NCBI GenBank assembly: GCA_001542995.1
Contig: LFLA01000012.1
Span: 1-64,000, forward strand
Direction of reading: 5' to 3'
From: Nitrospina sp. LS_NOB
GTDB taxonomy: Bacteria > Nitrospinota > Nitrospinia > Nitrospinales > VA-1
DNA length: 64,000 bases
The notes under the pieces were generated by a model, which saw only the letters and a list, made by a program, of their open reading frames with translations, was not told the DNA's origin and ran no database searches. Numbering within the stretch: position 1 is the stretch's first letter; the number at the start of each line of letters is the position of its first letter. This document shows, in pieces, positions 4,478 to 61,764 of this stretch. A program made the translations under genes and the position numbers.

Positions 4478-4537
4478 GCCAAGAGAACTCTTTGCTAACA
4501 TAAAAATTGTTTCTCATTGGGTCCAGCGTCACGCTGG
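4478..4537. repeat. Dispersed palindromic element, copy overlapping a gene end
   Basis: This stretch aligns with the copy at 8673-8742. Both have the core (AGCCAAGAGAACTCTTTGC here), then a TTTCTCATTG block, then the perfect palindrome CCAGCGTCACGCTGG at 4523-4537. It lies across the 3' end of the DUF190 gene, so the last residues and the stop codon (4495-4497) of that gene are read from element sequence. Confidence 0.7.
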
Positions 4538-4866
4538 AGGCCTTCGTAGAGGATGATTTTGACTTCTTCTTCGGTGATCAGTCCTTCTTCGATCACGTCG
4601 TCCAGTTTCGGTTTGACGCGTTCGATATTTTCTTTCCGGTCCACCACTTCCACCACGATCGGCAGGTCATCGGATAATCTTAGTATGGATGTCGTGTGCA
4701 GTTTGCTGGATTTCCCGAATCCGCTGATCCCTCTTAAAACAGTGGCTCCAGCCAGCCCTTCATTCTTGAAAAATTCCACCAGATATTTGGAAAGCGGTAC
4801 GCCCTCATATTTGTCGGACTCGCCGATAAAAATTCTAAGAAGAACAGTATCGGATTCTTTTTTCAT
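4495..4866 (-). CDS. DUF190 family protein, partner of fluoride channel
   Basis: The product (123 residues) belongs to the DUF190 family of small cytosolic proteins with a ferredoxin-like, PII-like fold, often encoded beside crcB. Recognisable segments are LLRIFIGESDKY, the FFKNEGLAGATVLRGISGFG core and LPIVVEVVD. It starts at ATG 4866, one base after the crcB stop codon, so the two are cotranscribed and perhaps translationally coupled. Its role in fluoride resistance is inferred from linkage only. The C-terminal tail (QRDAGPNEKQFLC) departs from the family and is encoded by a dispersed repeat that overlaps the gene end. Confidence 0.9.
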   Translation of the reverse strand: MKKESDTVLLRIFIGESDKYEGVPLSKYLVEFFKNEGLAGATVLRGISGFGKSSKLHTTSILRLSDDLPIVVEVVDRKENIERVKPKLDDVIEEGLITEEEVKIILYEGLQRDAGPNEKQFLC

Positions 4867-4867
4867 T

Positions 4868-5248
4868 TTATTTAAGTCCTATAACGGTGATCAAAACTTT
4901 TCCCATGTAAACGGCCAGCAGGCAGAGCGTGGCAGATTCCACCAGGTTGAGCCCAAACAGCATATGCTGGTCTTGTTCTAAAAGCTTCATCGACTCATAG
5001 CTGAGGGTCGACATGGTGGTGAACGAACCGAGAACACCGATGGTCAGGAACACCCGTGCTTCTTCGCCAAAAAGGCCCCGGTATTCAGAGGCGTACATGA
5101 CCAGCGCCAGCAGCAGACTGCCAATGAAGTTCACCCCGAGAGTACCAAAAGGGAAGGTGACGAATCCACTCTGAATCCACCCACTGACCCAGTAGCGTAA
5201 AATCGCCCCGATAAATCCGCCAAAACCCACTATTAACCAAAGTGACAT
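4868..5248 (-). CDS. crcB: Fluoride channel CrcB/FluC
   Basis: This 126-residue protein has four hydrophobic segments. It matches dual-topology fluoride channels, which dimerise in the inner membrane and export fluoride. Family landmarks are GGFIGAILRYWVSGW near the N-terminus, FPFGTLGVNFIGS (pore Asn) around residue 40 and GVLGSFTTMSTLSYE around residue 75, where the family has the TTFST track; the Phe is replaced by Met here. The start is ATG 5248. The DUF190 gene follows directly. I looked for a fluoride riboswitch in the 45 bases between this gene and the upstream repeat and did not recognise one, so the promoter may lie within the repeat. Confidence 0.95.
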   Translation of the reverse strand: MSLWLIVGFGGFIGAILRYWVSGWIQSGFVTFPFGTLGVNFIGSLLLALVMYASEYRGLFGEEARVFLTIGVLGSFTTMSTLSYESMKLLEQDQHMLFGLNLVESATLCLLAVYMGKVLITVIGLK

Positions 5249-5292
5249 GCTCTAAAATGTCTCCACTGTTTTCCCCGCCGAAATTGTACCAC

Positions 5293-5528
5293 CCACTAGG
5301 CGTGGGGCCAACTGGCAAAATTTTTCATTGGCTAGCAACGAGTTGTCTTGCCTGAATGAGCTATGCCATTTACCTGCGGAGGTTCTCTGTCCGGCGAGCC
5401 GCCGGGGGCAACCCACTCCCGTGGGAGGGAATATAGCAAAAACATATTGGGCCGAGATAACTCTTTGCTGGCCAGAAAAAGCTATTGCATATTGCCACCG
5501 GAGGTTCGCCGGGCCACACGTCTAGTGG
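5293..5528. repeat. Full-length palindromic element with terminal inverted repeats
   Basis: The element starts with CCACTAGGCGTGGGGCCA and ends with GGGCCACACGTCTAGTGG, an imperfect inverted copy. Inside are the core GCCGAGATAACTCTTTGC (about 5450), small hairpins of the GCGGAGG type (about 5378 and 5490) and another palindromic stretch near 5395-5430. Its length, 236 bp, almost equals the copy at 57773-58009 (237 bp), although the interiors differ. Its right end contains the TAG stop codon of the gene at 5522-8605. Confidence 0.75.
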
Positions 5529-8500
5529 CGATGAATGGTGTATTCGTGGTTGGCTAAAAACTCATGTTGTAATTTGGAAGTTTCTCCGGTGGACCAGGTT
5601 ATTTCTATTTGTTGGATAGTTTTATATTTCCCCAGACCGAAATGGGCGACGGGAGCGTCGTAGGAATGGAACCCACCGCCGGTTTTGATCTCGCGCATCT
5701 GGTGGCGTTTGCCATCCGGCCCATAGCGGATAATGAGGGTGCAACCGAGGCAGAACCGATTTCCCTGTTCATCGATTAGCTTGATCGTGACGCTGTTCCC
5801 CTGGGTATTGTTATTGGTATAGACCTTGAACGCTCCATATAAAGTGTTGGCGATAATGTCGAGATCGCCATCCCGATCGATGTCGATGTAGGTGTAAGAA
5901 GAGCTGTGATCGCGGTCGTCGAGTCCGAACTCTTCCTGGGCCTGGGTGAAAGACTGACCGTTCTGGTTGTGGAAAAAGTTATTCGAGGCAAACTCCTGCG
6001 TGATGGGCACACCGTTGACCACATAAAGGTCTTGCCATTCATCGTTATCCAGGTCGGCGAACCGGGCGTTCCAGCTCCACTCGGCGGTGGAGATTTTTGT
6101 TTGCTCAGAGACATCCTTGAAAGTGCGATCTGCTTGACCGGATAACAGCAGGTTGAACTGGGTCTGCATGGGAATTTCATCTTCTCGGGAAATTTCAACA
6201 TGCTCGGCCTGGAAAAATTTTTGGCAATAAGTTCGATTAAGAGTAAACGGATCCAAAATTTTATCGCAGAGGGAAGCGGATTTCCTGCTCGACGCCACGA
6301 GGATCATGCGTGTGACCATGCATTCTTTAATCCATTGTGGATCCTCCAGCCGGGTGCAGTGTTCGGTGATATCCTGCTTTTCCGGATTCAACACAGTGGT
6401 CAGTTGGTTGAACTGGTGGCAGGTCTCGCGGTCGAGCACGCTTTTGCCGGTATCGCAAAATTCCAGTCCTACCTCCTGCATGGTAGCGCCAAAAATATTG
6501 GAGACGACATCCAGCCCGCGTGACATCCCGATATTGGCGAGATAAATATCCGGGATCAGGTCATTGTTAAAATCGCCGGTATCGATACTCATAGTGTTCT
6601 GCGTGGTCAAGGGGACGACCTTGTCCTGTTGGCGGATTTTTTTGAACCCTGCACTAGAAGTTCCGAAATAATAAGTGTCCGCAACCCGATAGTCGTTAGC
6701 GATCATGAGATCGGCGTGGCCATCGGCGTTGATATCTGATAGCAGGACACTGTGAGTTTGTCCGGGGATTCCCTCAAGGGTCTGCAATTTGAATTCCAGA
6801 TTGTGATTGAGAACCCATTGGTTGACCGCTTGTTTAACCGGGGTACGGGTGAATATGCCTAAAAAATAATTGCCGTTGACGATATCGGGGAACCCATCGT
6901 GGTTGAGGTCGGCGAAGGCCGAGGCACTGGTCAGCAGAGCTCTTCCGTTGGGAACGGGCAGAACGGTCACCCGGCCTTCGTCGGGCAAGGGATTGAGAAT
7001 GACAAAGTTCCCTGCATTAAAAGTGGTGAGAAAAATATCGAGCCAGCCGTCATTATTCAAGTCTACCAGAGCGATGTTGATCGCCTGTTTTCCGTTTAAT
7101 GTTTCGATGCCGCTGAATATCTTTTTGAAACGGATTCCATTCATGTTCTGGTAGAGCTCGAATCCGTTATCAGTGGCCACGGCGATATCGGGCCAGCCAT
7201 CGAGATTGAAATCCCCGGAGGCAATGCCCCGGCCGAAAAACAATGGGTCGAGAAATATTTTCGGTGTCAGAGAATTGGAATAAGTGATCCCCAGCTCCGT
7301 TCCTATCCGTTGTGTGAACGGTTTGCCGGTTTGTTTGTTGCGGGGTGTGTGGGCTACGGCATGGACTTCCAGATTTTCCTGCCTGAGAATGATGGGGGCG
7401 GTATGTCGGGTCATCGGTACAGGAGAATAAATTTTCTCGGGAACGACCGGTTCTGCCTTGGGTGACTTGGTGCCGGACTCGTTTTCGGGCGCTTCAATAA
7501 TCCTGTCATACTGTACCAGCCATTCTACATGGCGGTATTCCAGCAAACTGTTCGAGGCATATCCCAGGCCGATACCGAGGGCAAAGACGATCACAAACAA
7601 TTTTACCGCCAGGAAAAAAGAGAAAGTGCGGTAGACGATCAGGGCGGAATAGATGCTGAATGTTCCGAAGGTGAACACCAGCGTGGTGACGAAGGCGGGG
7701 GAGAGTCCCGACATCATCATGGCCTGTGCCAGCATCAGGTCGAAGGCGATAGGCAGAGGCATCAGCGTTCCCATAAAGGAGAGTAAGCTGAGGTTGGCTA
7801 GATTGACCGGCATTCCGATCAACTTGTCAAAGCTCCATAGATGGCTGGCCAGCGCCCCGAACACTCCGGCCAGCAACATCAGCGGGACGGTGCGGGTAAA
7901 GATGTAGCCAAAACTTTTCCAGTAATCCCGGTTTGTCGATTTGAAAGCCATCGTCCAGGATTCTTGATCGGAGTTGAGATCGCAGGTTGTGGCAGGATCG
8001 ACTTCCAGGACCTGTTTTTCCGGCGCGGTTCGGGTCTTCTCCGAAATCAGCGGAACAATAATAAGGATCAAAATAAAAGTCGCCAGCAGTTTCATCAATG
8101 CCATGTAAAAAGGGAAAATCGAGAACAGCATGGTGAGGACAACGATGTTCAGGGTGGGGGAACTGAACATGACAGCCAGGGCCGTTTCCATTTTGCTACC
8201 ACCTTCATACATGCCTTTGGCGATTGGCGCGACGCAGTTGACACAGACCCCGAGCGGGGTGCCGACAAACATTCCCATGAAACTGTTGCGAAAGCGCCGG
8301 TCCGAAGACTGGCGCGGGGTATATTTGAGGAGGGTATAGAATCCTGCTGCGAGAACCAAGCCAAAGGCCATTCCGCGCCAGTTGGTTTCGTACCAGTTGA
8401 GAGCGGTATAGGCCACACGTGCGACAAAGTTCGCCTGCCGGGGAGCGTGAAAGTGGGCTTCGTGGGTGAGCGGGTCTTCAAAGGCCGCCATGCCAGAGAG

Positions 8501-8605: not shown

Positions 8606-8672
8606 TCAAACGTATTATCTGGCATTTAGAGAAGAACTACTTTTACCTTAAAAGGTCTTAGTGGGCAAGAAT

Positions 8673-8742
8673 TCATCAAGCCGAGATAATGCTTTGGCTC
8701 GCCAGATAAGGTTATTTCTCATTGAGTCCAGCGTCACGCTGG
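8673..8742. repeat. Dispersed palindromic element upstream of glnS
   Basis: The core AGCCGAGATAATGCTTTGG is followed by GCCAGATAAGGTTATTTC, CATTGAGTCCAGCG and the palindrome CCAGCGTCACGCTGG (8728-8742). The glnS ribosome binding site begins two bases after it. The element therefore lies in the glnS leader and could affect its expression by forming a hairpin; that is an inference. Confidence 0.65.
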
Positions 8743-8757
8743 TAAGGAGAAAAGATT

Positions 8758-10452: not shown

Positions 10453-10467
10453 CTGCTTTACAAAATT

Positions 10468-11499: not shown

Positions 11500-11510
11500 T
11501 ATGATGAAAA

Positions 11511-12641: not shown

Positions 12642-12898
12642 AAAACCCTCCGAAAAGACAAATAGCTTTTTGGATATTTTCGCAATATAGCAATTTTATG
12701 AGCATTTAAAAAGCTATATTTATATGCTATTTCTTTAATTAAAATTATTTCCAGGCTATATCACATTTTTTCAATGCCTTTTGATTCTGAGGGTGTGCGC
12801 TGATAGCACAAAAAATATTTTTAAAATACTTCAAGTTAAGAGTCTTAACAGCGATTTTCCTTGCAAGATTTATGGTTTTGTGGAATCGTAATTTCTCT

Positions 12899-12927: not shown

Positions 12928-12973
12928 TCTTCAAGCTTGAAAACGGTCTTTTGCCTACCTTCAAAGGAGTTTT

Positions 12974-16417: not shown

Positions 16418-16531
16418 CCACTAGCCAGTACCACTCCTACGGGGCATGATGGCAAGTGAAGGGGATACTACAGCCGCCAGCATTTTTGCCAGCCAATTCA
16501 AGCTATTGCGCATTGGTTCCACGCCTAGTGG
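16418..16531. repeat. Dispersed palindromic element between M23 gene and mtgA
   Basis: It begins CCACTAGCC directly after the TAA of the M23 gene and ends TTGGTTCCACGCCTAGTGG at 16513-16531. The interior has the CCTACGGGGCATGATGGCAA module and TTTTTGCCAGCCAATTC. It fills nearly the whole gap between the two genes. Confidence 0.7.
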
Positions 16532-18492: not shown

Positions 18493-18799
18493 TTGGGCGC
18501 TGAAACGATATGGGTTAATACGTTAGAAATTGAATTGAAAGTGCTTCTGTTAAAACCAGCTTTAGCTGAGAAGAAAATCAAACCATCTTGATTATCTTTT
18601 TCTAGCTTTAGCTTTCTTTTTAGCTTTCTTTTTAGCTTTTTTCTTTGTTGCTTTTTTCTTAGCTACTTTTCTTTTTGGAGCTTTTTTCTTAGCTTTTTTC
18701 TTAGCTACTTTTCTTTTTGGAGCTTTTTTCTTAGCTTTTTTCTTGGTTGCCATCAAGATCTCCTTTCATACGTCAATCGGTATTCGTTTCAGCGCCCAA
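18493..18799. repeat. Inverted repeat flanking the histone-like gene
   Basis: TTGGGCGCTGAAACGA at 18493-18508 recurs as the exact reverse complement at 18784-18799. The homology continues roughly on either side, with a two-base gap (GTATT before the arm and ATA after it). The arms flank the small Lys/Ala-rich gene at 18592-18753. One arm lies downstream of the gene and the other in its leader between promoter and start codon. Confidence 0.6.
18592..18753 (-). CDS. Histone H1-like Lys/Ala-rich DNA-binding protein
   Basis: This 53-residue reading frame on the minus strand starts at ATG 18753 and ends with TAA. AAAGGAGAT stands seven bases upstream, a strong ribosome binding site. The product is almost entirely Lys, Ala, Arg, Pro and Val. 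It has two exact tandem units KKKAKKKAPKRKVA (positions 4-17 and 18-31), followed by KKKA repeats and a final ARKR. This composition matches the C-terminal tail of histone H1 and the bacterial HctB/AlgP-type nucleoid proteins, which bind DNA by charge. I infer a nucleoid-associated protein. The low-complexity sequence makes the exact repeat number prone to variation or error. Confidence 0.82.
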   Translation of the reverse strand: MATKKKAKKKAPKRKVAKKKAKKKAPKRKVAKKKATKKKAKKKAKKKAKARKR

Positions 18800-21652: not shown

Positions 21653-21689
21653 GTTTGAACTCCCCTGAGAAGGGAGACTTTGCATAACC

Positions 21690-21811
21690 CGTCGTTGCGA
21701 GGAGCCAACTGCGACGAAGCAATCCATAACACCTTTGCAGAGCATGAAGGCTAATTGAGGAAGCATCACGGTACTGGATCGCCGCGCTCCTTTCAGTCGC
21801 TCGCGACGACG
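21690..21811. repeat. 122-bp palindromic repeat (family 2), first copy
   Basis: It begins CGTCGTTGCGAGGAGC and ends TCGCTCGCGACGACG, so the ends are inverted repeats with one mismatch over 12 bases. Read in reverse complement it aligns along its whole length with 39078-39198. It resembles the widespread GTCATTGCGAG-type intergenic repeats of many bacteria. The flanking GCATAACCC is shared with the second copy. Confidence 0.8.
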
Positions 21812-21885
21812 AATAGCGTGGTTTTTAATATTTAGGCGGGTGGAGCTAGTAAATGACAGGTTATGCAAGGGTCTCTATCAGGGAG

Positions 21886-22020
21886 GGAATTGGCCAATAG
21901 CTCGTTAAGCCGAGATAACGCCTGCCTGTAATTTGAAGTTATTGCCAGTTTACCCCTTCGAGGCATGAAGCTAATGTTGGGAGTATCACATCCACCGGCG
22001 GGCTCGCCGGCCCCCGGTGG
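21886..22020. repeat. Dispersed modular element (family 1)
   Basis: It contains GGCCAATAGCTCGTTAAG, the core AGCCGAGATAACGCC, GAAGTTATTGCCAGTTTACC, the CCCCTTCGAGGCATGAAGC module and a GC-rich terminal hairpin (CCACCGGCGGGCTCGCCGG then CCCCCGGTGG). It directly follows a family 2 repeat. Confidence 0.55.
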
Positions 22021-23842: not shown

Positions 23843-23939
23843 CCACTAAGCGTGGAGCCAGCGTGCAATAGCTTTTGTTGGCTATCAACCCTTCTTCTCG
23901 GCTTAATGAGTCCTTGCCAGTTGGCCCCACGCCTAGTGG
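23843..23939. repeat. Compact full element with inverted ends
   Basis: At 97 bp this is the clearest complete copy. It begins CCACTAAGCGTGGAGCCA directly after the purH TAA, has TGCAATAGCTTTTGTTGGC, then CTCGGCTTAATGAG, and ends TTGCCAGTTGGCCCCACG with CCTAGTGG. The ends are inverted repeats of about 18 bases. A hairpin GGCGGAGGCTCTCCGCC follows just outside. Confidence 0.8.
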
Positions 23940-24007
23940 GCGGAGGCTCTCCGCCTCTGTGATAGTCTGGGGCTAAACAGTTTCCCCTTAAAACCGATAA
24001 GCTATCT

Positions 24008-25351: not shown

Positions 25352-25490
25352 CCACTCAGCGTGGGGCCGATTACCAATAGCTTTTTACCCCTAAGGGGCA
25401 CGAATGCTTAGGAAGAATATCACGTACTGCTAGCAATCGATCTCTCGGCTTTAGGAGCTATTGCTGATTACCTGCGGAGGTTCTCCGCTG
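25352..25490. repeat. Dispersed modular element overlapping amidase gene end
   Basis: It starts CCACTCAGCGTGGGGCCG, has ACCAATAGCTTTTTACC, CCCCTAAGGGGCACGAATGC, GAAGAATATCACG, TCTCGGCTTTAGGAGC and ends with the hairpin GCGGAGGTTCTCCGC. The final codons and stop of the amidase gene (25451-25490) lie within it. Confidence 0.6.
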
Positions 25491-26413: not shown

Positions 26414-27277
26414 TTAACTTTCTGTGGTGCTTCCCCAATGAAGTTTTTTCCTCAGGGTTTGATAATAGTTTTTTCCCGGAGCCTGCACCAACTTTACCGA
26501 TATCTGGGCCTTTTCCGCTGCAAGGATATCTCCGGACTTCATATCGCAACCCATTTGCCCATCAAGCGTTATTCTGACATCTTCGTCTTCATGGCGTTTG
26601 GCCAGTTCCACTTTTATTTTTGAGGTGTCGGGAACCACAATGGGTCGGTTTGTCAGGTCAAAAGGACAAATCGGGCTCAACACCAAAGCCTGCATACTGG
26701 GATGAATGATGGGTCCTCCTGCCGAGAGAGAATAAGCGGTGGAGCCTGTTGGCGTGGCAATGATCAATCCGTCGGCTCGGTAGGAGGTCATGGGTTGGTC
26801 GTTAACCCGCACGGTAAGGTTTACGATTCTGGCTAGAGCGCCTTTGTTGATGACAATATCGTTCAACACATTAAAATCTTGTATTTTTTTTCCGTCGCGC
26901 CAGAGCGAGGCATTCAGCAACATGCGGTGTTCTATTTTACATTCTCCGTTTAAGGCACTTTGAAGGGTGGGATAGAGGTTTTCGAGAGTGGTTTCGGTTA
27001 AAAAACCCAGGCTCCCGAGATTGACCCCCAGAATAGGGACGCTGTGCGAGTGGGCGATGCGGGCCACCTTTAACAAGGTTCCGTCTCCTCCAAGCACGAT
27101 GATCAGTTCAGAGAGGCTGGGAATTTCTTCATGGGAGGCTGTTTCGCCGGTCAACTCGGCGGTATTCTGATCCATATGAAGGTTGTAGTCTCGCTCCCGC
27201 AACCATTGCACCAGATTGCTGACTACTTTAGGATCTATCGAGGGTCTTGGTTTGCAAAATAACCCTATATTTTTCAC
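26414..27277 (-). CDS. nadK: NAD kinase
   Basis: NadK phosphorylates NAD to NADP using ATP or polyphosphate. The protein (287 residues from GTG 27277) has the family motif IVLGGDGTLLKVAR near residue 55, LGVNLGSLGFLTE, and the glycine-rich second motif SYRADGLIIATPTGSTAYSL minus ends near residue 165. I prefer GTG 27277 because it places KNIGLFCKP at the N-terminus as in relatives. An in-frame ATG at 27325 would add 16 residues lacking similarity. Upstream, family 1 repeat modules fill the intergenic space. Confidence 0.94.
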   Translation of the reverse strand: MKNIGLFCKPRPSIDPKVVSNLVQWLRERDYNLHMDQNTAELTGETASHEEIPSLSELIIVLGGDGTLLKVARIAHSHSVPILGVNLGSLGFLTETTLENLYPTLQSALNGECKIEHRMLLNASLWRDGKKIQDFNVLNDIVINKGALARIVNLTVRVNDQPMTSYRADGLIIATPTGSTAYSLSAGGPIIHPSMQALVLSPICPFDLTNRPIVVPDTSKIKVELAKRHEDEDVRITLDGQMGCDMKSGDILAAEKAQISVKLVQAPGKNYYQTLRKKLHWGSTTES

Positions 27278-27349
27278 CGGCGTACCGCCGGTAGTATAAT
27301 TGGCAAGAGTTGTTTTTGCATGCAATCGCTCATGACGGCTTTACGGGAT

Positions 27350-27545
27350 ATGGCTCTCTACCAAGGGGTGGCTAGCAATAAGTTTTTTCGGCTTAACCGG
27401 CGTAGCCGCCGAAGGTGTGGAGCCTGTCCCCACCGGGCGTGGCCCGGCTCCTCCCTGTGAAATTTTTCCTTAGTTTTTACCCTTTCAGGGCATGAATGCA
27501 AATGAAGAAATATTACACATGCCCCGGAGGGGTTGCTAGAGGGGC
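27350..27545. repeat. Modular intergenic repeat between nadK and nuclease gene
   Basis: It contains GGTGGCTAGCAATAAG, TTTTTTCGGCTTAACC, the hairpin CCGGGCGTGGCCCGG, a CCCTTTCAGGGCATGAATGC module, AAATGAAGAAATATTACAC and GCCCCGGAGGGG. These are the same building blocks as other family 1 copies but arranged differently. Confidence 0.5.
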
Positions 27546-30357: not shown

Positions 30358-30480
30358 CTACTCGGCGTAGGGCCAGCCGGCAAAACTTTTATTGCTGGCA
30401 ACGAGTTGTCTCGGCTGAACAGGCCACGCCAACTACCAGCGTCATGCTGGATTAAATGAGCAATGGCTAATTTAGGTGAG
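30358..30480. repeat. Dispersed modular element after pagL-like gene
   Basis: It starts CTACTCGGCGTAGGGCCAGC directly after the TAA, has GGCAAAACTTTTATTGCTGGC, CGAGTTGTCTCGGCTGAAC, the alternative palindrome CCAGCGTCATGCTGG and AATGAGCAATGGC. It thus carries both head types, one at each end. Confidence 0.65.
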
Positions 30481-33248: not shown

Positions 33249-33254
33249 CGCGGC

Positions 33255-33345
33255 CACTCGGCGTGGGGCCAGCACTGCATTGCCCATAAAGCGGACCGAA
33301 CACTCAAGCGCAATACTTTAATGATCTTCCCACTGATAAGGGGGA
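33255..33345. repeat. Direct repeat partner of 44014-44104
   Basis: CCACTCGGCGTGGGGCCAGC begins a stretch of about 90 bases nearly identical to 44014-44104, including GCGGACCGAACACTCAAGCG (GCGGACGGAACACTCAAGCG there). It lies six bases after the exporter stop codon. A GGGGGATCGAGGGGG-type tract follows. Confidence 0.7.
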
Positions 33346-37402: not shown

Positions 37403-38158
37403 ATGAGCTCATCACCTTTTAAATTTGATCGCAGAAATTTCCTGAAAATATTTTCCCTGACTACTTTGTCAGCGTTGATGCCGAAAAAATCCGGGTGGGC
37501 AGACGATTTTCGTAACGACAAAAACATTCCCAAGCAATATGTCCAGAACCGGGATACTCCCGGTTTCCATATTCGCAGTGCCAATCCGTTTCTTGGTGTG
37601 GAGATGCAAAACTGGGGGCTGGCAATAGGGGGGATGGTTAAAAAACCCATCGGTCTTGCTTATGAGGATTTGTTCGGATTAAAAATGCATTCCCAGGTTT
37701 CGCGGCTCAAGTGTGTTGAATGCTGGTCCGCCAAAGCCAGGTGGGAGGGATTCCGCTTTGAAGAGCTGTTGAAACAGGTCCAGCCCGATCCATCCGCGAA
37801 GTTTGTTTATATCCAGTCCGCCGATTCCTATTACGAAAGTTTTGCGCTGGAAGAATTGCTCCGGCCCCGTGTCCTCTTTGTCCTGCGTATGGATGGCCAG
37901 CCGTTGAGCCGCGATCATGGGTTTCCCCTGAGGCTGATCATGCCCTTTAAGTATGGCTACAAAAATATCAAATACATCACCAGTATCAAGTTTCTCGATT
38001 CCCGCAAGCGCAATTACTGGTCGATGAACGGACCTTATTCTGTGGATGGAACCATCCAGCCGGGTGTCGACCACCCCCTGGACTTAGACAAGAAACCCCT
38101 GTCGATCAACGGCGGCGAAGTATTCCATTTTTTCGATGAACGTCCGGGCAACCACTAG
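37403..38158 (+). CDS. Molybdopterin-dependent oxidoreductase, sulfite oxidase fold
   Basis: This 251-residue protein has a twin-arginine-like signal (FDRRNFLKIFS) and the sulfite oxidase/MsrP molybdopterin fold. The molybdenum-coordinating Cys is in RLKCVECWSAKARWEG near residue 110, and DHGFPLRLIMPFKYGYKNIKY minus its end, near 170, is the cofactor pocket. MsrP-type enzymes repair methionine sulfoxide in the periplasm; sulfite oxidation is the alternative. No membrane haem partner (MsrQ) is adjacent. The modABC operon elsewhere in the window supplies molybdate. The stop codon TAG lies within the CCACTAGG head of a repeat, so the last His codon is element sequence. Confidence 0.9.
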   Translation: MSSSPFKFDRRNFLKIFSLTTLSALMPKKSGWADDFRNDKNIPKQYVQNRDTPGFHIRSANPFLGVEMQNWGLAIGGMVKKPIGLAYEDLFGLKMHSQVSRLKCVECWSAKARWEGFRFEELLKQVQPDPSAKFVYIQSADSYYESFALEELLRPRVLFVLRMDGQPLSRDHGFPLRLIMPFKYGYKNIKYITSIKFLDSRKRNYWSMNGPYSVDGTIQPGVDHPLDLDKKPLSINGGEVFHFFDERPGNH

Positions 38159-38250
38159 GCGTGGGGCCAGTTGGCAATGGCTCTAATTGGTTAACAACAG
38201 GTTAGTTCGGCTTAATAGACTTTTGCTCCCCCTTCTTCGAAGGGGGTTGG
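38152..38250. repeat. Dispersed modular element providing a stop codon
   Basis: CCACTAGGCGTGGGGCCAGT is followed by TTGGCAATGGCTCTAATTGG, AACAGGTTAGTTCGGCTTAA and a CCCCCTTCTTCGAAGGGGG hairpin at about 38228. The preceding gene reads into it and uses its TAG at 38156-38158. Confidence 0.7.
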
Positions 38251-38984: not shown

Positions 38985-39077
38985 GGTGATTAATGATGAT
39001 GGGATGCGGGAATGCTTACATGGTAATCAAGATGGCGCTCTCTCTAGCCAGCAAAATTTTATTTCGGCTTGTTGAGC

Positions 39078-39198
39078 CGTCATCGCGAGCGACTAAAAGG
39101 AGCGCGGCGATCCAAGTTTGTGATGTTCCTTCATTAGCCTTCATTCTCCGTAAGTATATTCTGGATTGCTTCGTCACCGTTGGTTCCTCGCAATGACG
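39078..39198. repeat. 121-bp palindromic repeat (family 2), second copy
   Basis: Inverted relative to 21690-21811. It begins CGTCATCGCGAGCGACT and ends TTCCTCGCAATGACG; the ends are inverted copies with one mismatch over 12 bases. The interior shares AGGAGCGCGGCGATCCA and GGATTGCTTCGTC in reverse complement with the first copy. A family 1 fragment (TAGCCAGCAAAATTTTATTTC) sits directly upstream. Confidence 0.8.
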
Positions 39199-42624: not shown

Positions 42625-42840
42625 TCACCCTTCCCCTCTTTAAAAAAGAGGGAGCAAGATGACGGTTTGTTGAGCCGAGCTAACCTGTTTCCTGCCAAAA
42701 AAGTTATCGCTAGTTAACCTCTTCGGGGCATGAAACCTAATGAAGAATACAATGCAGTGGAGGCTGATCCTTCGACTGGCTCAGGATGACTGATCGGCGG
42801 TCGCGTAGCGTCACCGCCACACTGGCCCCACGCCGAGTGG
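42625..42840. repeat. Dispersed modular element between nfu-like and ferredoxin genes
   Basis: From left: a CCCCTCTTTAAAAAAGAGGG hairpin, the core GAGCCGAGCTAACCTG, GCTAGTTAACCTC, TTCGGGGCATGAAACC, TAATGAAGAATACAATGC, a CCTTCGACTGGCTCAGGATG segment typical of another bacterial repeat class, a GGCGGTCGCGTAGCGTCACCG hairpin, and the terminal CTGGCCCCACGCCGAGTGG at 42822-42840. It ends directly at the ferredoxin stop codon. Confidence 0.6.
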
Positions 42841-43939: not shown

Positions 43940-44013
43940 AACGGATTTTCTTATGAGTTCGGGTTCCGGGGATCATACCGGACTTGGCACAGCTTACGCA
44001 ATCATTTTCTCCC

Positions 44014-44104
44014 GCTCGGCGTGGGGCCAGCACTGCATTGCCCAAAAGGCGGACGGAACACTCAAGCGCAATACTTTGATAAACTTCCCCCTGATTAAGG
44101 AGAC
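44014..44104. repeat. Direct repeat partner of 33255-33345
   Basis: CTCGGCGTGGGGCCAGCACT and the following stretch to about 44104 match 33258-33345 with few differences. It carries the family 1 head at its left end. Located upstream of the ferredoxin gene, in the space between oppositely placed units. Confidence 0.7.
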
Positions 44105-45609: not shown

Positions 45610-45692
45610 CCCCGGAGCCTTGCCAGTTAAGCCGAGATAACTCTTTGCCAGCCAGATAAGTTATTGCAATTTGCGAGCGGAGGCACTCCGCT
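45610..45692. repeat. Dispersed modular element abutting zinc-ribbon gene
   Basis: It has GCCTTGCCAGTTAAGCCGAG, the core GCCGAGATAACTCTTTGCC, AGCCAGATAAGTTATTGC and the terminal hairpin GCGGAGGCACTCCGC (45677-45691). The final base of that hairpin is part of the stop codon of the neighbouring gene. Confidence 0.65.
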
Positions 45693-48958: not shown

Positions 48959-49297
48959 GATTTTTTCTATCACGGTGCAGCAATCGGGGGTGATTCAGGT
49001 GAACTAGAAACGTTTGAGAAGAGCCCGAAAACCCAGTTTTCGGGCTTTGAAAATCATCTTATAGTGAGGGGCGATGGCTGTCAATCATTTTAAAATCAAT
49101 CTGTTCAATATTTTACGGGAGGTTTGCCGACAAATGAAATCGCTTGACAGGGATGATGCTCGTTTATATACTCCCCTCCTCTTATGAAGATAAGAAATCG
49201 TTCTGGATATTGCAGTGAGGGCAGAGAACCTCTGCTGATAATAAACCATGTTTTTTACCCCTCCGGGGCATGAAGGCAAAGGTTAAATATCACAAGT

Positions 49298-52823: not shown

Positions 52824-52849
52824 AGAGCGAAATAAAACTAAAAATAAAA

Positions 52850-57771: not shown

Positions 57772-57772
57772 G

Positions 57773-58009
57773 CCACTAGCCGTGGGGGCAGATAGCCATG
57801 GTCCGTCAAGCCGAGAGAGCGTTTGCCCACCAGACGTGATATTCCTCCTAAGTTTTCGTGCCCCGGAGGGGTATAAAGATAGTGCTCAGCATTACGCAGA
57901 GTAAAGGTAGTTTGATGTTGCATGATCAAGAAGCTCTTTTAGGGGTAGCAAGTTATTGCTCATTTCCTCAAGGCCTAGCCTTGTTGCCAATTGGCCCCAC
58001 GCCTAGTGG
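57773..58009. repeat. Full-length palindromic element between divergent genes
   Basis: It starts CCACTAGCCGTGGGGGCA and ends GCCAATTGGCCCCACGCC with TAGTGG, inverted copies. Inside are AGCCGAGAGAGCGTTTGCCC, GATATTCCTCCTAAG, TGCCCCGGAGGGGTATAAAG, AAGTTATTGCTCATTTCC and the palindrome AAGGCCTAGCCTT. At 237 bp it matches the length of 5293-5528. It fills the space between the ABC ATPase start and tesA, so the promoters of both must be in or next to it. Confidence 0.75.
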
Positions 58010-58026
58010 TATTGTAGTATAAAAAG

Positions 58027-58686
58027 ATGCGAACAAATTGGCTAAACTTTAAACATATTTTTCGGTCATTTTTGTTGTTGGGGGCGCTTTGTGTGCTGTT
58101 CCCAGCACCGGTTTTGTCAAAGGAGAAGGCTGTGGTTTTAGCTTTTGGAGACAGTTTGACGGCAGGGCATGGCGTGAAGGAGGAAGAAAGCTATCCCTCC
58201 AGATTGCAGGCGAAGGTTGCCTCTGCCGGGTTCCCGCATAAAGTGGTCAATGCCGGGGTGAATGGAGACACGACCGCCGGTGGGGTGCGGCGCATCCGCT
58301 GGCTGATGAAGCATGAGCCGGAAATTGTGATCCTGGCGCTTGGCGCCAATGATGGTTTGCGCGGACTCTCTGTCGATGAGATGCGGCGCAACCTGGAAAC
58401 CATGATCGGAATCTGCCGGGAACATAACGCCCGGATACTACTTGCCGGGATGAAGGCCCTGCCTAACTATGGTGAAGATTATATGCGGAAATTTGAAACA
58501 GTCTTCTCCGAACTTGCTAAAAAACACGATTTGATTTTCCTGCCATTTTTACTGGAAGGGGTCGCGGGGGTGCGTGAGCACACTCAGCCTGACGGTTTGC
58601 ATCCTGTCGCCTCGGGTTACAGTATCGTCACCGATCTTGTCTGGCAAAAACTGCAACCAATGCTTACGGAGAACCTCCGCAAGTAA
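58027..58686 (+). CDS. tesA: SGNH esterase/thioesterase TesA-like
   Basis: The 219-residue periplasmic hydrolase has a signal peptide (FLLLGALCVLFPAPVLS) and the four SGNH blocks: VLAFGDSLTAGHGV (nucleophile Ser), VNAGVNGDTTAGG, ILALGANDGLRG and PDGLHPVASGY (catalytic Asp and His). TesA acts as thioesterase, protease and lysophospholipase. It is divergent to the ABC exporter genes, as in E. coli. Confidence 0.94.
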   Translation: MRTNWLNFKHIFRSFLLLGALCVLFPAPVLSKEKAVVLAFGDSLTAGHGVKEEESYPSRLQAKVASAGFPHKVVNAGVNGDTTAGGVRRIRWLMKHEPEIVILALGANDGLRGLSVDEMRRNLETMIGICREHNARILLAGMKALPNYGEDYMRKFETVFSELAKKHDLIFLPFLLEGVAGVREHTQPDGLHPVASGYSIVTDLVWQKLQPMLTENLRK

Positions 58687-58702
58687 CTTGTAATATCTTT
58701 AA

Positions 58703-58763
58703 CAAATGGGCAAACGTTCTCCCGGCTTGATGGGTTATTGCTCATTGGCACCACGCCTAGTGG
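58703..58763. repeat. Element copy encoding a gene tail
   Basis: It has CAAACGTTCTCCCGGCTTGA, GGGTTATTGCTCATTGGC and the head ACCACGCCTAGTGG. Read on the minus strand it encodes the final residues TTRRGANEQ and the stop of the TrpD2-like gene. It lies between that gene and tesA. Confidence 0.7.
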
Positions 58764-59811
58764 TCCATTGCATGAGCGTTTCATAGCAAGAGCCGGATTC
58801 CAGGACGGTCAGGGCCTGGTCAAATCCTTCTTGCGCGGTGGCAAACAATCCTGACAGATGAGTCAGTGTTCCCGCCTGACTGGCGACTTGCAGGCTTGCC
58901 GGTCCCTTTCCTGTTTTCAATGCTTCTTCTCCCATCTTCACCAGGGTTTCAAGATTGGATTCGATCGACTTTAATTCTTCATGGGCCTCGGCGATGCGCA
59001 GTGCCGTTTCTTCGGTGTACAGGGTTTTGAGGGACAGGTTGATTTGTTGCGTGGTCTTTTCCTGAATGAACATTTTTGCTTCTTTGTGAACGCCAAACAG
59101 GGTGGTGCCTTCCATTCCATTTCCGATGATCACTTTATCGAACTGGCTGAGCTTGGCGATTTCGGTGAGTGCTATTTCATAGCCTTTGTGGAAATAGGTG
59201 GTGGCGAGAATATTCTGCCGGGCCTTGACCGGCATCAGAATTTTTTCCAAAGTGGCCAGCATCGGGCGTTTGACAATTTCAGTCCGTAAAGACCTTAAAG
59301 CTTCCAATTGTGGCAGAGTGTTTGCGGTGCTGAGATAACTGAAGCGATACTTTTCCAGCAACGCCATGCGTTGCTCTCCCTCGTTCGCTCCATAATGGCT
59401 TTGCAAAATTTGCTCAAAGGTGATGCCAAATTTTGGGGGTAATGGCAACGCCGAATGACCATAGACCGGCAGGCCGAGTTGGGCAATGACCGGAATAGCG
59501 TAAAAACCGAAATAGGGCGTGCGCTGGAACCCATCAAAGGGATCGGCGATTTGCAGCAGCCGGTCAAGGTCTACCGTGACCGGAGAAACGCGGTTTTGCA
59601 TGGCTCGCCAATAGCCAATGTTTTCAGGCACGGTTTCCAGTTTCATGCGCGCGGCAATGAGAAAGACCCCGGCGCGGACTTTTGAAACTTTTTTGTCGAG
59701 AATCAGGCTCAGGGCATCTTCGGCTTCCTCTTCCGTCAGGTCTTTACTCAAACGGGGACCTGCGGCAATTTTTTTCAGGTAGTCCTTCATTCTTGTTTCG
59801 GATTCCGGCAT
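58735..59811 (-). CDS. TrpD2-like glycosyltransferase family 3 protein
   Basis: This 358-residue protein resembles anthranilate phosphoribosyltransferase. The N-terminal helical domain (SKDLTEEEAEDALSLIL, KVRAGVFLIAARMK) and the catalytic domain are present, but the PRPP motif GTGGD is missing; the equivalent region reads LPVYGHSALPLPPKFGIT. It is thus a TrpD2/YbiB-type protein, which bind nucleic acids rather than anthranilate. No other trp gene is near. Its C-terminal nine residues are repeat-derived. Confidence 0.85.
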   Translation of the reverse strand: MPESETRMKDYLKKIAAGPRLSKDLTEEEAEDALSLILDKKVSKVRAGVFLIAARMKLETVPENIGYWRAMQNRVSPVTVDLDRLLQIADPFDGFQRTPYFGFYAIPVIAQLGLPVYGHSALPLPPKFGITFEQILQSHYGANEGEQRMALLEKYRFSYLSTANTLPQLEALRSLRTEIVKRPMLATLEKILMPVKARQNILATTYFHKGYEIALTEIAKLSQFDKVIIGNGMEGTTLFGVHKEAKMFIQEKTTQQINLSLKTLYTEETALRIAEAHEELKSIESNLETLVKMGEEALKTGKGPASLQVASQAGTLTHLSGLFATAQEGFDQALTVLESGSCYETLMQWTTRRGANEQ

Positions 59812-59944
59812 TTTTTACGGTTTCCTTTCTAAGATCCGTCAATTAGGGTATATAATAACCTCTTAAGAGAACTCTAACAATCAGCATTTTTAGCCCTTGC
59901 TGGTTTACCCTGGGCGTGGCCCGGGCAATTTTTTTCTGGTGTTT

Positions 59945-61648
59945 ATGCAGGTTTCTTATTCATCTGAATCGACTCTCGACTCAACTCTTTCCCGCAACGA
60001 CTTGCGAGTGCTTTTGGTCTACCCCAACACGCGCGATGTGGCGATGGCCAATTTGGGTTTCCAGCAGGTTTATTCTCTGTTGAACCAGATCGAAGGGGTG
60101 GCGTGCGACCGTTTTGCCATGCCTGTTGGGTGGAAGCCGGAAACGCAGTCTCTGGAACGCGAGGCGTTGCGCTCGATGGATTTGAAAATGAATCCGCTTG
60201 AGTTCGATGTCATCGCTTTTTCGATTTCGTTTGAGCCCGACTACCTGAACGCGGTGTTGGCCTTGAAATACTTCGGCATTCCGCTGGACCGGGATGAGCG
60301 GGACGCATCGTTTCCGATGATCACCGCAGGGGGATCGGCGGTATTCATCAACCCTGAACCGTTGGCGGAGTGCATGGATGTCTTGTTCATCGGTGAGGGA
60401 GAGGGCATGGCCGAGCAGTTTTTCGGATTGCTCCGTGATAATGAGGATCGGGATCAGTTTTTCGAGCGCGCCGTTTCCATCCCTGGAATTTATTTGCCGC
60501 AACATTACCGCCCCAAAATGGAGGCAGGCCTGCAAGTCGGAGTTTCGGCCTTGGAGGGAGTCCCTTCCCGTATTGTTCGGCATTGGGTGGAGCAGGAAGA
60601 GTCGCTTTGTACACACTCGGTTCTGCACGATGGGGATTCCACTTTCAAAGATATGGCGTTGATGGAGGTCACAAGGGGATGCATTTGGGCCTGCCGGTTC
60701 TGTACGGCGGGTTTTATATACCGTCCTCCGCGTCTCCCAAATCTAGAGAAAACTTATAGTTCGATGGAGTCTGTGCTCAATGGACTTGGAAAATCGGCGA
60801 ATACGATCGGTCTGGTCGGTCCGTCGGTGACCGACCATCCGGACCTTCCGGCGTTAGCGCGGAAAATTACCGAACAGGGCAAGAAGCTTTCGTTCTCTTC
60901 TTTGCGGATGGAAACGCTCACCGATGAGTTGGTGGATCTCATTCTGCAAAGTGGACAGAAAACGTTGACGGTGGCGGTGGATGGTCCATCCGAAAGAATG
61001 CGCGATGTTATCAATAAAGCCGCGACCGATGATTTCATCGTCGAGAAATGCCGGTTCCTGACCCGAAAAGGTATCCTGCATTTAAAAATCTATTCCATTA
61101 TAGGGTTGCCTCATGAAACCGAGGAAGACATTGACCAATTCATTCGACTGGTCGAGCGGGTGCAGGAGGGTTATGTCGAAGAATGCCGTAAGCTTGGGCG
61201 CATTGGTCGGGTGACGATCAGCCTGAGTCCGTTAGTGCCCAAACCGGGAACGCCTTTTCAGTGGCACCCGATGGAGACTGTGAAGAGCTTGAAGAAAAAG
61301 TTTGCCCGGGTGAGAAAAGCTCTGGGTAAATTGCCGTATCTTAAAATGAGTTTTGGTTCTCCCAACGAAGCCTACCTGCAAACCTATTTGTCGCGGGGAG
61401 ATCGGAATACACAGGCTTTTTTCAAAACTTACCTGAATAACGGTCACGATGCCAAGAGCGCGTTGAAGGAGCATCCCGTCGATCAATATGTCTACCGGCA
61501 ATATAAAAAGGACGATTACCTGCCCTGGGATATTATTGATCACGGTTACCGCCAAAACTTCCTGTGGGAGGACTACCAGCGGGGATTGAACGCGGCGCAT
61601 ACTCCTGTCTGCGATACCGCGACCTGCCACATCTGCGGCCTCTGCTAG
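59945..61648 (+). CDS. B12-binding radical SAM protein, TIGR03960-like
   Basis: The 567-residue protein has an N-terminal cobalamin-binding-like domain (LRVLLVYPNTRDVAMANLGF, ITAGGSAVFINPEPLAE, VLFIGEGEG) and a radical SAM domain with CIWACRFCTAGFIYRP near residue 257 (CxxxCxxC). It matches the TIGR03960 group, often fused to or next to DUF2344; no DUF2344 is present here. The C-terminus ends CHICGLC, a possible second metal site. ATG 59945 is preferred to a longer frame from 59897. Its reaction is unknown. Confidence 0.87.
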   Translation: MQVSYSSESTLDSTLSRNDLRVLLVYPNTRDVAMANLGFQQVYSLLNQIEGVACDRFAMPVGWKPETQSLEREALRSMDLKMNPLEFDVIAFSISFEPDYLNAVLALKYFGIPLDRDERDASFPMITAGGSAVFINPEPLAECMDVLFIGEGEGMAEQFFGLLRDNEDRDQFFERAVSIPGIYLPQHYRPKMEAGLQVGVSALEGVPSRIVRHWVEQEESLCTHSVLHDGDSTFKDMALMEVTRGCIWACRFCTAGFIYRPPRLPNLEKTYSSMESVLNGLGKSANTIGLVGPSVTDHPDLPALARKITEQGKKLSFSSLRMETLTDELVDLILQSGQKTLTVAVDGPSERMRDVINKAATDDFIVEKCRFLTRKGILHLKIYSIIGLPHETEEDIDQFIRLVERVQEGYVEECRKLGRIGRVTISLSPLVPKPGTPFQWHPMETVKSLKKKFARVRKALGKLPYLKMSFGSPNEAYLQTYLSRGDRNTQAFFKTYLNNGHDAKSALKEHPVDQYVYRQYKKDDYLPWDIIDHGYRQNFLWEDYQRGLNAAHTPVCDTATCHICGLC

Positions 61649-61651
61649 CCA

Positions 61652-61764
61652 CCACTGGACGCGGGGCTGTACCCCCTTCCAAAATATTCATGCCCCGAAA
61701 AGGGGTACGACTGCAATAGCGTAAATAGGCTGGCAAAAGGTTAGTTCGGCACGATTAAGTCTTT
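61652..61764. repeat. Dispersed modular element after radical SAM gene
   Basis: It has CCACTGGACGCGGGGC three bases after the stop codon, a CATGCCCCGAAAAGGGG module, TGCAATAGCGTAAATAGGC and GGCAAAAGGTTAGTTCGGC. It is more diverged than other copies. Confidence 0.5.

What the first reader, a model, noticed from the sequence alone, without database searches (positions are those of the whole stretch)
4478..61764. Dense family of modular palindromic elements with CCACTAGGCGTGG ends
Seen directly: about 17 intergenic copies in 64 kb (near 4.5, 5.3, 8.7, 16.4, 21.9, 23.8, 25.4, 27.4, 30.4, 33.3, 38.2, 42.7, 44.0, 45.6, 57.8, 58.7 and 61.7 kb). Complete copies (5293-5528, 16418-16531, 23843-23939, 57773-58009) have inverted ends with CCACTAGGCGTGGGGCCA. 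Others use the alternative palindromic head CCAGCGTGACGCTGG. Shared interior blocks are AGCCGAGATAACTCTTTGC, AAGTTATTGC, CCCCTCCGGGGCATGAA and GCGGAGGTTCTCCGC. Modules recur in different orders, which is unlike a simple MITE and more like BIMEs built from exchangeable parts. Their mobility and function are inference.
Basis: partly seen in the sequence, partly recalled or inferred. Interest (0 to 1): 0.85.

Follow-up and report, generated by a model that had tools for sequence, protein, structure and literature searches.

The report
Modular hairpin-ended mobile repeats in Nitrospinota
A relative of marine nitrite-oxidising bacteria carries hundreds of tiny DNA repeats that sit mostly between genes, nest inside one another and swap their hairpin ends; many of the different ends follow one base-pairing rule, and no enzyme that could move them was found.

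Summary
All 17 reported sites carry repeat modules, far above chance; the genome has 62 exact 18-base heads and a projected ~310 copies of the main 53-bp body. Further modules are body B, a 39-bp module C and several hairpin 'heads'. The core of body A was found only in this genus among 60 genomes searched. Orthologous sites are filled in some congeners and empty in others, and module C sits inside body A at five or more positions, and inside itself, with no evident target duplication, so mobility is well supported. The RAYT idea is not: four of the five copy-richest genomes lack Y1 transposase. New here: (1) many different heads look like variants of one structured end, a hairpin whose loop is complementary to the adjacent flank; (2) left and right ends use different cassettes; (3) in module C the terminal base covaries with the base just before its hairpin, like guide/cleavage-site pairing in IS200/IS605. 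Best reading: non-autonomous elements moved in trans, probably as single strands, by an unidentified enzyme; the single-strand step is inference.

The parts
4471..4537 (-). body A (4471-4502, partial) and K hairpin CCAGCGTCACGCTGG (4523-4537)
5293..5528 (.). composite: H head 5293-5310, body A 5323-5364 (+), N hairpin 5391-5405, Z hairpin 5412-5429, body A 5436-5488 (-), degenerate H near 5511-5528
   Evidence: G003 lacks the left part and has a K-like right end
8665..8742 (-). body A 8665-8716 and K hairpin 8728-8742
16418..16531 (-). element directly after a stop codon: truncated head CCACTAGCCAG, body A 16474-16509 (-), H-like right end 16514-16531; site empty in 6 of 11 genomes with data
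21895..21989 (-). body A 21895-21945 followed by module C 21951-21989
23843..23954 (+). 97-bp H-A-H element (23843-23939; body 23865-23917) starting right after a stop codon, with G hairpin 23940-23954
25352..25488 (+). H variant at 25352, module C on the minus strand 25386-25424, body A 25429-25464, G hairpin 25474-25488
27277..27516 (+). N hairpin 27277-27291, body A 27369-27400, H-like 27430-27442, module C 27478-27516 (-)
30358..30450 (+). H head with compensated stem CTACTCGGCGTAG 30358-30375, body A 30387-30425, K hairpin 30436-30450
33254..33345 (+). H head 33254-33271 with body B 33272-33322
38152..38226 (+). H head 38152-38169 (its TAG is the stop codon of ORF 37403-38158) and body A 38174-38226
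42664..42840 (-). body A 42664-42707, module C 42717-42749, H head 42823-42840
44012..44103 (+). H head (CCGCTCGGCGTGGGGCCA) with body B 44030-44080; 88% identical to 33254-33345
45623..45691 (-). body A 45623-45667 and G hairpin 45677-45691
57773..58009 (.). composite between divergent genes: H variant CCACTAGCCGTGGGGGCA, body A 57798-57834 (-), module C 57835-57873, H 57992-58009; shared in place with G003 and G013, empty in 9 congeners
58667..58763 (+). 97-bp element between convergent genes: G-type left end, body A 58692-58741, H right end 58746-58763; empty in 6 congeners, differently headed elements in G003 and G014
61652..61766 (+). degenerate H, module C 61676-61707, body A 61713-61766
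3278..3316 (+). solitary module C
   Evidence: E 7.5e-7
4412..4450 (+). solitary module C (weak)
   Evidence: E 5.7e-4
49256..49293 (-). module C beside tRNA genes
39037..39078 (+). weak body A remnant
   Evidence: E 3.7e-3

Best explanation
These are non-autonomous, modular mobile repeats. An element is a short body (A, 53 bp; B, about 51 bp; others) between two end cassettes. A cassette is a hairpin of 4-6 bp with a 3-5 nt loop, a spacer base or two, and a flank whose next bases are, in many cassettes, complementary to the loop; hairpin and flank appear to be exchanged together. A separate 39-bp module C ends in a hairpin, and its first base covaries with the base just before that hairpin. 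Shown by sequence comparison: dispersal, patchy occupancy of orthologous sites, nested insertion without evident target duplication, different ends at the same site, and both covariation patterns. Inferred: the pairings matter in a single-stranded DNA form, where hairpin plus guide-like pairing mark the ends for an endonuclease/transposase acting in trans, which is not identified. Accumulation close behind stop codons probably reflects tolerance by selection, with or without a target preference.
For: Copies: 62 exact heads in this genome, 178 in G015, 0-6 in six congeners. Orthologous sites: 57772, 9 of 15 genomes with data empty; 16418, 6 of 11 empty; 58667, 6 of 14 empty. Module C is present in the window at 57835-57873 and absent from the shared element of G003, a clean 39-bp difference; of the 4 window C modules (of 9) inside an alignment block with G003, none is present there. 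C lies inside H-A copies at 5 or more positions: 18 C-type inserts listed, 13 of 38-40 bp and 5 double or nested of 79-81 bp. H covariation: of 153 column pairs in 80 distinct heads the highest mutual information is loop 8-flank 16, then stem 3-11 and 2-12; 93.3% of cells paired against 34-47% when slid, covariation score 0.361 against 0.153 in shuffles, 0 of 500 (on 60 of the 80 picked by eye). Non-H ends: 44 of 102 distinct types obey the rule against 19.2 expected, maximum 33 in 5000 permutations. Within the 6-bp/3-nt class with loops ending in C (28 types) A-T 6, A-C 2, G-C 17, G-T 0, Fisher 1.6e-4, three A-G or A-A types left out of that test; within the 5-bp/4-nt class with loops ending in C 21 of 33, permutation p 2.5e-4. 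Left/right use: Q 2/32, Z 0/13, G 18/1, K 20/5, H 87/26, N 16/10. Module C: top of 741 column pairs is 1-24 (C-G 23, T-A 6, A-T 3, G-C 2 of 42; controls). A guide just 5' of the hairpin foot that pairs with the cleavage site is the described IS608/IS200 logic (passages of PMC5934647, and PMC6006769).
Against: No enzyme found: Y1 is missing from G015, G003, G012, G010, so the known single-strand transposase cannot be the universal driver. 58 of 102 non-H end types do not meet the two-base rule at the predicted offset (some through hairpin parsing), offset 3 is raised as well (26 of 151 against 11.4), and only 9 of 18 K-type copies with loop TGA follow it; loop AAC goes with AGGAA in one type. 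Body A shows no conserved fold, and single elements fold unevenly as ssDNA (z from -4.3 to +1.3 in 5 folds). In module C pair 2-23 never changes on both sides, the number of pairs with changes on both sides is no higher than in shuffles (336 of 500 reach it), and unpaired column pairs such as 11-12, 11-17 and 17-24 follow closely in mutual information, so shared descent contributes. Both pairings of H formed at once would leave a one-base connecting loop, which from general knowledge is too short; they may be alternatives. Mispairs do not point to one strand. At three sites the native spacer is largely missing where an element is present, which is not simple insertion.
Confidence: 0.5

Rival explanations
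1. REP/BIME (REPIN) elements moved by a REP-associated tyrosine transposase.
For: Extragenic, palindromic, mosaic, often close behind stop codons, with compensatory stem changes, as described for REPs (passages of PMC3733652 and PMC2817692). One intact 325-aa Y1 protein exists in this genome.
Against: That gene has no H, K or A motif within the 3.3 kb fetched. Of the five copy-richest genomes (G015, G003, G000, G012, G010) only G000 has Y1, while G005 has Y1 and one head. No GTAG/GTGG tag seen 0-2 nt before the hairpin foot; stems of 4-6 bp instead of 7-20 nt (definition in PMC6006769).
Confidence: 0.08
2. MITEs of a cut-and-paste (DDE) insertion sequence whose terminal repeat is CCACTMGGCGTGGGGCCA; different interiors share these ends.
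For: H ends bracket unrelated bodies (A, B, and elements of 173-178 bp in L038, L055, L058). H reaches further (genus g6, G042) than the core of body A.
Against: Only 9 of 158 body-A copies had H on both sides by strict pattern. No constant target duplication seen by eye in 27 H-H pairs below 600 bp. DDE_Tnp_1 absent from G000, G003, G010, G012, G015; no repeat above about 350 bp in 464 kb of G000 at megablast sensitivity. Other DDE families were not searched. A DDE end needs no loop-flank covariation.
Confidence: 0.15
3. Cis-acting RNA or DNA structures (terminator, processing or topology sites) kept by selection and spread by recombination among copies; movement is incidental.
For: 24 of 55 distances from a body to an adjacent stop codon are 30 bp or less, against 3 of 53 to an adjacent start. 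15 of 54 are between convergent genes, where 43 of 237 spacers (9.8 expected) are convergent. Compensatory stem changes. The same post-stop sites carry different elements in different congeners.
Against: 14 of 54 extragenic bodies lie between divergent genes, as expected from 61 of 237 divergent spacers. No T-run follows the end hairpins in the consensus, by eye; no terminator scan was run. The core of body A is missing from all 44 genomes outside the genus. Nested insertions of C are not explained.
Confidence: 0.17
4. Replication errors (template switching at quasi-palindromes) plus ectopic gene conversion perfect the hairpins and shuffle the ends, without a transposase.
For: No transposase of the families tested is common to the copy-rich genomes; among heads with canonical loop and flank 225 pair perfectly and 25 have one mismatch; a tandem array of about 98-bp units exists; ends differ at orthologous sites.
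Against: Does not explain new copies of the same 39-bp sequence at unrelated targets, nor why the loop should match the flank, which no stem-repair process requires.
Confidence: 0.1

Closest known systems
REP / BIME / REPIN with RAYT
   Same: Many short extragenic palindromic repeats, mosaic clusters, inverted pairs, compensatory stem changes, position behind stop codons
   Different: No Y1 in four of the five copy-richest genomes, no GTAG/GTGG tag, shorter stems, a 53-bp conserved body, several interchangeable ends with loop-flank complementarity, nested insertions
CGTC-tagged REPs (including RPE-4/6 and dRS3), PMC3733652 (passages)
   Same: Palindromic, dispersed, described there as lacking a dedicated transposase
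   Different: Heads and module C do not carry the CGTC end tag; modular body and end cassettes. A CGTC-like repeat may be separately present near 21690 (resemblance by eye)
IS200/IS605 ends (IS608)
   Same: Hairpin ends, no evident target duplication, unequal left and right ends; in module C the bases just 5' of the hairpin foot can pair with the terminal bases
   Different: No Y1 transposase in four of the five copy-richest genomes; in the end cassettes the pairing is between loop and flank; 2-4 nt pairings
MITEs
   Same: Short, non-autonomous, terminal inverted repeats in H-A-H copies
   Different: Most copies have unlike ends; no constant target duplication seen; no partner transposase found
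Deinococcus small noncoding repeats, pneumococcal BOX elements (recalled, not compared)
   Same: Modular or mosaic short repeats
   Different: Sequence not compared here

Membership tests
REP/BIME (RAYT-linked) | Many extragenic palindromic copies | tested here: met
   54 of 55 bodies extragenic by a crude gene call; 62 exact heads
REP/BIME (RAYT-linked) | GTAG or GTGG 0-2 nt before the hairpin foot, basal stem 7-20 nt | tested here: not met
   Upstream base counts of 172 heads show no such tag; on the other strand the bases before the hairpin are GGCC-like; stems mostly 4-6 bp. Definition from PMC6006769 passages
REP/BIME (RAYT-linked) | RAYT gene flanked by the repeats | tested here: not met
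   (L126, 3.3 kb) for this genome; no Y1 in G015, G003, G012, G010. Flanks of Y1 genes in other genomes not examined
CGTC REP | CGTC tetranucleotide at one end of the hairpin | tested here: not met
   Inspection by eye of the 80 distinct heads and the 42 C modules
MITE of a DDE insertion sequence | Matching terminal inverted repeats | tested here: inconclusive
   H-A-H copies exist, but only 9 of 158 by strict pattern
MITE of a DDE insertion sequence | Constant-length target duplication | tested here: not met
   None evident by eye in 27 H-H pairs; C insertions show none
MITE of a DDE insertion sequence | Autonomous partner with the same ends | tested here: inconclusive
   33 H pairs bracket no recurrent transposase by eye; only DDE_Tnp_1 searched
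IS200/IS605 derivative | Y1 (HUH) transposase available in the genome | tested here: not met
   Absent from G015, G003, G012, G010 (draft assemblies, 82-94% complete); present in G000
IS200/IS605 derivative | Guide 5' of the hairpin foot pairing with the cleavage site | tested here: inconclusive
   Module C 1-24 covaries, 2-23 compatible; that the termini are cleavage sites is inferred from insertion borders
IS200/IS605 derivative | Insertion without target duplication | tested here: met
   Module C, with one-base ambiguity at some borders
Rho-independent terminator | GC hairpin followed by a T-run, absent between divergent genes | tested here: not met
   14 of 54 divergent; no T-run in the consensus by eye, terminator scan not run
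Any Rfam RNA family | Match to a curated model | tested here: not met
   Only 3 tRNAs at gathering score; one further sub-threshold hit overlaps a tRNA

The most novel reading that the evidence does not exclude
A separate class of single-strand mobile repeat: exchangeable ends defined less by sequence than by a hairpin whose loop base-pairs with its own flank (and, in module C, by a terminal base paired beside the hairpin), recognised by an enzyme outside the Y1, DDE_Tnp_1, IS110 and reverse-transcriptase families tested. The end code would be base-pairing itself, so ends can change freely as long as loop and flank change together.
Probability: 0.2. Interest if true: 0.85.

Novelty: new variant of a known kind. 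Interest (0 to 1): 0.62.

Why it matters
Palindromic repeats without a transposase are an open question (the CGTC REPs are described as such in PMC3733652). Here is a bacterial genus in which such elements turn over between relatives, nest without evident duplications and show a testable pairing pattern that links seemingly unrelated palindromes. It gives a concrete search rule (hairpin, spacer, loop complement), genomes ranked from 0 to 178 heads for a search of the driver, and defined filled/empty site pairs. If the ends are recognised by pairing, they would be another natural case of DNA-guided end recognition. If not, the rule still predicts which heads belong together, and the elements will confound annotation of gene ends and promoters in relatives of marine nitrite oxidisers.

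Tried and rejected
RAYT: one Y1 gene, no repeats in the 3.3 kb fetched, Y1 absent from four of the five copy-richest genomes. Reverse transcriptase (PF00078): absent from G000, G003, G010, G012; present in 4 of 16, G015 among them, so rejected as universal driver only. DDE_Tnp_1: 5 of 16 genomes (G013 with 30 heads among them), none of the five copy-richest. IS110 (PF02371): 3 of 16 including G010; in G000 a partial match (positions 30-86 of 87) in a 154-aa frame, probably a remnant (not tested); absent from G003, G012, G015. Y2 (PF04986): 0 of 16, but the controls were silent too, so this says nothing. Other transposase families were not searched.

Stem of body A: tried as the explanation of its symmetric GCAATRGCT ends, rejected because the alignment of 137 copies gives no consensus structure. 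Orientation of body relative to the neighbouring gene: 18 same, 12 opposite, 25 with no stop within 120 bp, no clear bias. Strand of folding from mispairs: no answer. An autonomous element between two H ends: none seen. Rfam: none.

Literature: searches for Nitrospina + palindromic (13 papers listed, none on such repeats by title), Nitrospinae + repetitive extragenic palindromic (0 papers), Nitrospina + repeat + miniature inverted-repeat (2 listed, about other organisms by title). So I found nothing in print on these repeats within those searches of an open-licence library; no wider claim.

Rows dropped and limits: one search used 60 of the 80 distinct heads (20 that did not look H-like left out by eye, which favours the structure; the mutual-information test used all 80); 286 of 383 ends had a qualifying hairpin, 269 kept after normalising, 151 distinct; 158 of 233 body hits; only loops ending in C; three of 28 types left out of the Fisher table; 42 distinct full-length C copies from 105 hits; the script failed after 8 of its 12 segments; the other four were not aligned that way (58667 is covered, 61676). 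The loci were fetched because they hold H, and some loci in the 1.54-Mb set overlap, so totals there are inflated; densities come only from C24 plus window. The gene calls are my own and crude (74-76% coding).
Full report
WHAT WAS CHECKED. The window is contig C14, bases 1-64000, of a 2.65-Mb assembly in 26 contigs. The head CCACTAGGCGTGG occurs 15 times in the window with up to 2 mismatches against a shuffle mean of 0.94, and 53 times exactly in the genome against 0 for the backward control.

ANATOMY. An iterated profile search gave one 53-bp body A, consensus GCAATAGCTTTATTTGGCTAGCAAAGAGTTATCTCGGCTTAATGAGCCATTGC, with 233 hits at E 0.01 or better in a 1.25-Mb set and 55 in the 464 kb of this genome that I held; that projects to roughly 310 in 2.65 Mb. 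A larger, partly overlapping 1.54-Mb set gave 266 hits (54 in the 464 kb) and none in the reversed sequence. Body B (about 51 bp) has 30 hits there, 2 of them in this genome's sample and both in the window; module C, CGTGATATTCTTCCTTAGCTTTCGTGCCCCGAAGGGGTA, 39 bp, has 105 hits, 51 of them in the 464 kb; reversed controls 0. Bodies are flanked by hairpins of several sequences, which I call H (CCACTAGGCGTGG), K (CCAGCGTGACGCTGG), G (GCGGAGNNNCTCCGC), N (CCGGCGNNNCGCCGG), Q (CCCCTTAGCAGGGG) and Z (CCCACTCCCGTGGG); these labels are mine. A tandem array of four copies of a G-A-H unit of about 98 bp lies at G000:C24 near 165.7-166.1 kb.

DISTRIBUTION. CCACTMGGCGTGGGGCCA is found exactly in 21 of 60 genomes searched: 15 of 16 of the genus (this genome included), the five genomes of genus g6 in the sample, and G042. 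Counts in the genus run from 0 (G011) to 178 (G015). A 20-base core of body A, up to 2 mismatches, is in 14 of 16 of the genus and in 0 of 44 others; the backward control rang once, in G015. Module C, up to 3 mismatches, is in 13 of 16 of the genus and once each in G022 and G037, control 0. So the ends reach further than the body, and the family is not conserved in place across distant species.

MOBILITY. Three orthologous sites were compared. At 57772-58026, between divergent genes, 15 genomes gave data: the composite is present in G000, G003 and G013 (with additional modules in G013), G015 has a half element, G006 and G014 have other sequence, and nine have 50-55 bp between the anchors instead of 256. 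At 16418, directly behind a stop codon, 11 genomes gave data: G000, G003, G009 and G015 are filled, six are empty, and G006 has other sequence. At 58667-58763, between convergent genes, 14 genomes gave data: G000, G003 and G014 have elements with three different left hairpins, six are empty, G006 and G009 have partial or hairpin-only sequence, G005 has other sequence, and G004 and G010 have multi-kilobase inserts; G013 gave no anchor. G000 and G003 are 83-89% identical in aligned stretches, yet in the 8 of 12 segments that the comparison script finished most gene ends carry different elements, a fast turnover; some parts are shared, such as the right half of 5293-5528. At all three multi-genome sites much of the native spacer is missing where an element is present; I cannot explain that by simple insertion.

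NESTING. The search for interruptions of H-A copies lists 18 C-type inserts at five or more places, 13 of 38-40 bp and 5 double or nested of 79-81 bp; one head is split by a C that is itself split by another (L103). The shared composite of G003 lacks the C that the window has at 57835-57873; of nine window C modules, four lie inside an alignment block with G003 and none of these is present there, though only the first is a clean difference. No target duplication is seen, with one base of ambiguity at some borders. By my reading, 9 of the 18 lie at or within one base of GC^AA, which may be a target preference.

END RULE. In 246 H-like ends selected for a few fixed bases and a perfect stem, loop base 8 and flank base 16 are G-C 206 times, C-G 29 times and otherwise 11 times. 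Without selecting for pairing, on 80 distinct heads next to body A, mutual information over all 153 column pairs is highest for 8-16, then 3-11 and 2-12. The counting tool gives 93.3% paired cells against 34-47% for slid versions and a covariation score of 0.361 against 0.153 for shuffles (60 of the 80 heads, picked by eye). The same geometry fits many other heads: loop TCCC with flank AGGGA, TAC with TGGTA, AGC with TGGCA, TGA with ACTCA, TAGC with AGGCA. Over 151 distinct end types the last two loop bases match at the predicted offset in 75, against 24.7 by permutation (maximum 40 of 2000); offsets 0 and 1 show nothing, and offset 3 is raised too (26 against 11.4). Without H it is 44 of 102 against 19.2, so 58 of 102 do not match, some because of how the hairpin was parsed; K heads with loop TGA match in 9 of 18 copies. 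Within single classes, loops ending in C only, the association stays: Fisher 1.6e-4 (three of 28 types outside the table) and permutation 2.5e-4. Copies are related by descent, so these numbers are guides, not probabilities.

TWO UNLIKE ENDS. Of 165 left and 121 right ends with a hairpin: Q 2 left and 32 right, Z 0 and 13, G 18 and 1, K 20 and 5, H 87 and 26, N 16 and 10, other 22 and 34. This is expected for an element with distinct left and right ends and not for a simple inverted repeat.

MODULE C. Over 42 distinct copies and 741 column pairs the strongest association is between the first base and base 24, the base just before the terminal hairpin: C-G 23, C-A 6, T-A 6, A-T 3, G-C 2, C-C 1, T-G 1. 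Pair 30-34 in the hairpin also changes on both sides (C-G 35, G-C 6, T-A 1), and 26-38 is G-T in 42 of 42. Against this, pairs outside the fold such as 11-12, 11-17 and 17-24 come next (0.54-0.49 bits against 0.77). The covariation score is 0.184 against 0.059 in shuffles (0 of 500), but the count of pairs with changes on both sides, 2, is reached by 336 of 500 shuffles, and pair 2-23 never changes on both sides. On the three variable pairs alone the score is 0.476 against 0.140; a slide by +2 pairs 90.5% of cells but with no two-sided change. The first base and the hairpin's last base are also the borders of the inserts. In one strand this fold would bring the two termini side by side. In IS608 a guide just 5' of each hairpin foot pairs with the cleavage sites (passages). 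That likeness is the main ground for a single-strand mechanism; it is an analogy, not a membership.

POSITION. 54 of 55 bodies in this genome's sample are extragenic by a crude gene call of my own: 25 between tandem, 15 between convergent and 14 between divergent genes, against 133, 43 and 61 such spacers of 60 bp or more. Of 55 distances to an adjacent stop 24 are 30 bp or less, of 53 to an adjacent start 3 are. The divergent share equals expectation, which speaks against a terminator as the sole role; the convergent share is somewhat raised.

SEARCH FOR THE DRIVER. Y1: 21 of 60 genomes; of the genus only G000, G004, G005 and G013, not G015, G003, G012, G010. RT: 4 of 16. DDE_Tnp_1: 5 of 16, none of the five copy-richest. 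IS110: 3 of 16. Y2: uninformative. No repeat longer than about 350 bp was seen in the 464 kb of G000 at megablast sensitivity. These are draft assemblies, and genes of multi-copy elements may be missing from them.

PAPERS. PMC3733652, PMC2817692, PMC5934647 and PMC6006769: passages found by term; PMC3116915: outline and abstract; others: search listings only. BOX elements, Deinococcus repeats and the minimum loop lengths of pseudoknots are from memory.

VERDICT. A real, mobile, genus-level family of modular hairpin-ended repeats; a new variant of the REP/BIME/MITE kind, not a RAYT-linked REP. The end-pairing rule and the terminal pairing of module C are the surprising parts and can be tested directly.

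Noticed in passing
window 38152-38169: The TAG inside the H head CCACTAGG is the stop codon of ORF 37403-38158; the element seems to set the end of this ORF.
   Followed up: no
window 21678-21870: Another repeat type: GACTTTGCATAACCCGTCGTTGCGAGGAGCC...GCAATCC with an inverted partner GGTTATGCAAGGGTCTC; related CTTTGCATAACC blocks recur in L280 and in the 12-mer list. By eye it resembles CGTC-tagged repeats.
   Followed up: no
L126:892-1869: Single intact Y1 (RAYT-like, 325 aa) gene found in this genome, with none of the repeat motifs searched within the fetched 3.3 kb.
   Followed up: partly
G000:C24:165704-166144 (L135): Four tandem copies of a G-hairpin/body A/H unit of about 98 bp, just behind an ORF whose end reads like ribosomal protein L34 (by eye).
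   Followed up: partly
L038, L055, L058: H-ended elements of 173-178 bp with AT-rich interiors unlike body A; L038 and L055 look like two variants of one locus in the same bin.
   Followed up: no
L034 and L112: H heads in contigs labelled Neomarinimicrobiota and Litorilinea. L034 carries two heads and body A-like sequence, so probably a misbinned Nitrospinota contig; the single match in L112 may be chance.
   Followed up: no
window 18585-18762: Low-complexity repeat (TTTTTCTTAGCTTT units, periods 12-42 bp), perhaps a lysine/alanine-rich protein tail on the minus strand.
   Followed up: no
L245 and L249 (G010:C189, G004:C112): At the site orthologous to 58667-58763 these genomes carry 3.7-4.7 kb of other sequence; in G010 it starts with an N-like hairpin.
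   Followed up: no
three sites: Native intergenic spacer mostly lost where an element is present: replacement rather than plain insertion; unexplained.
   Followed up: partly
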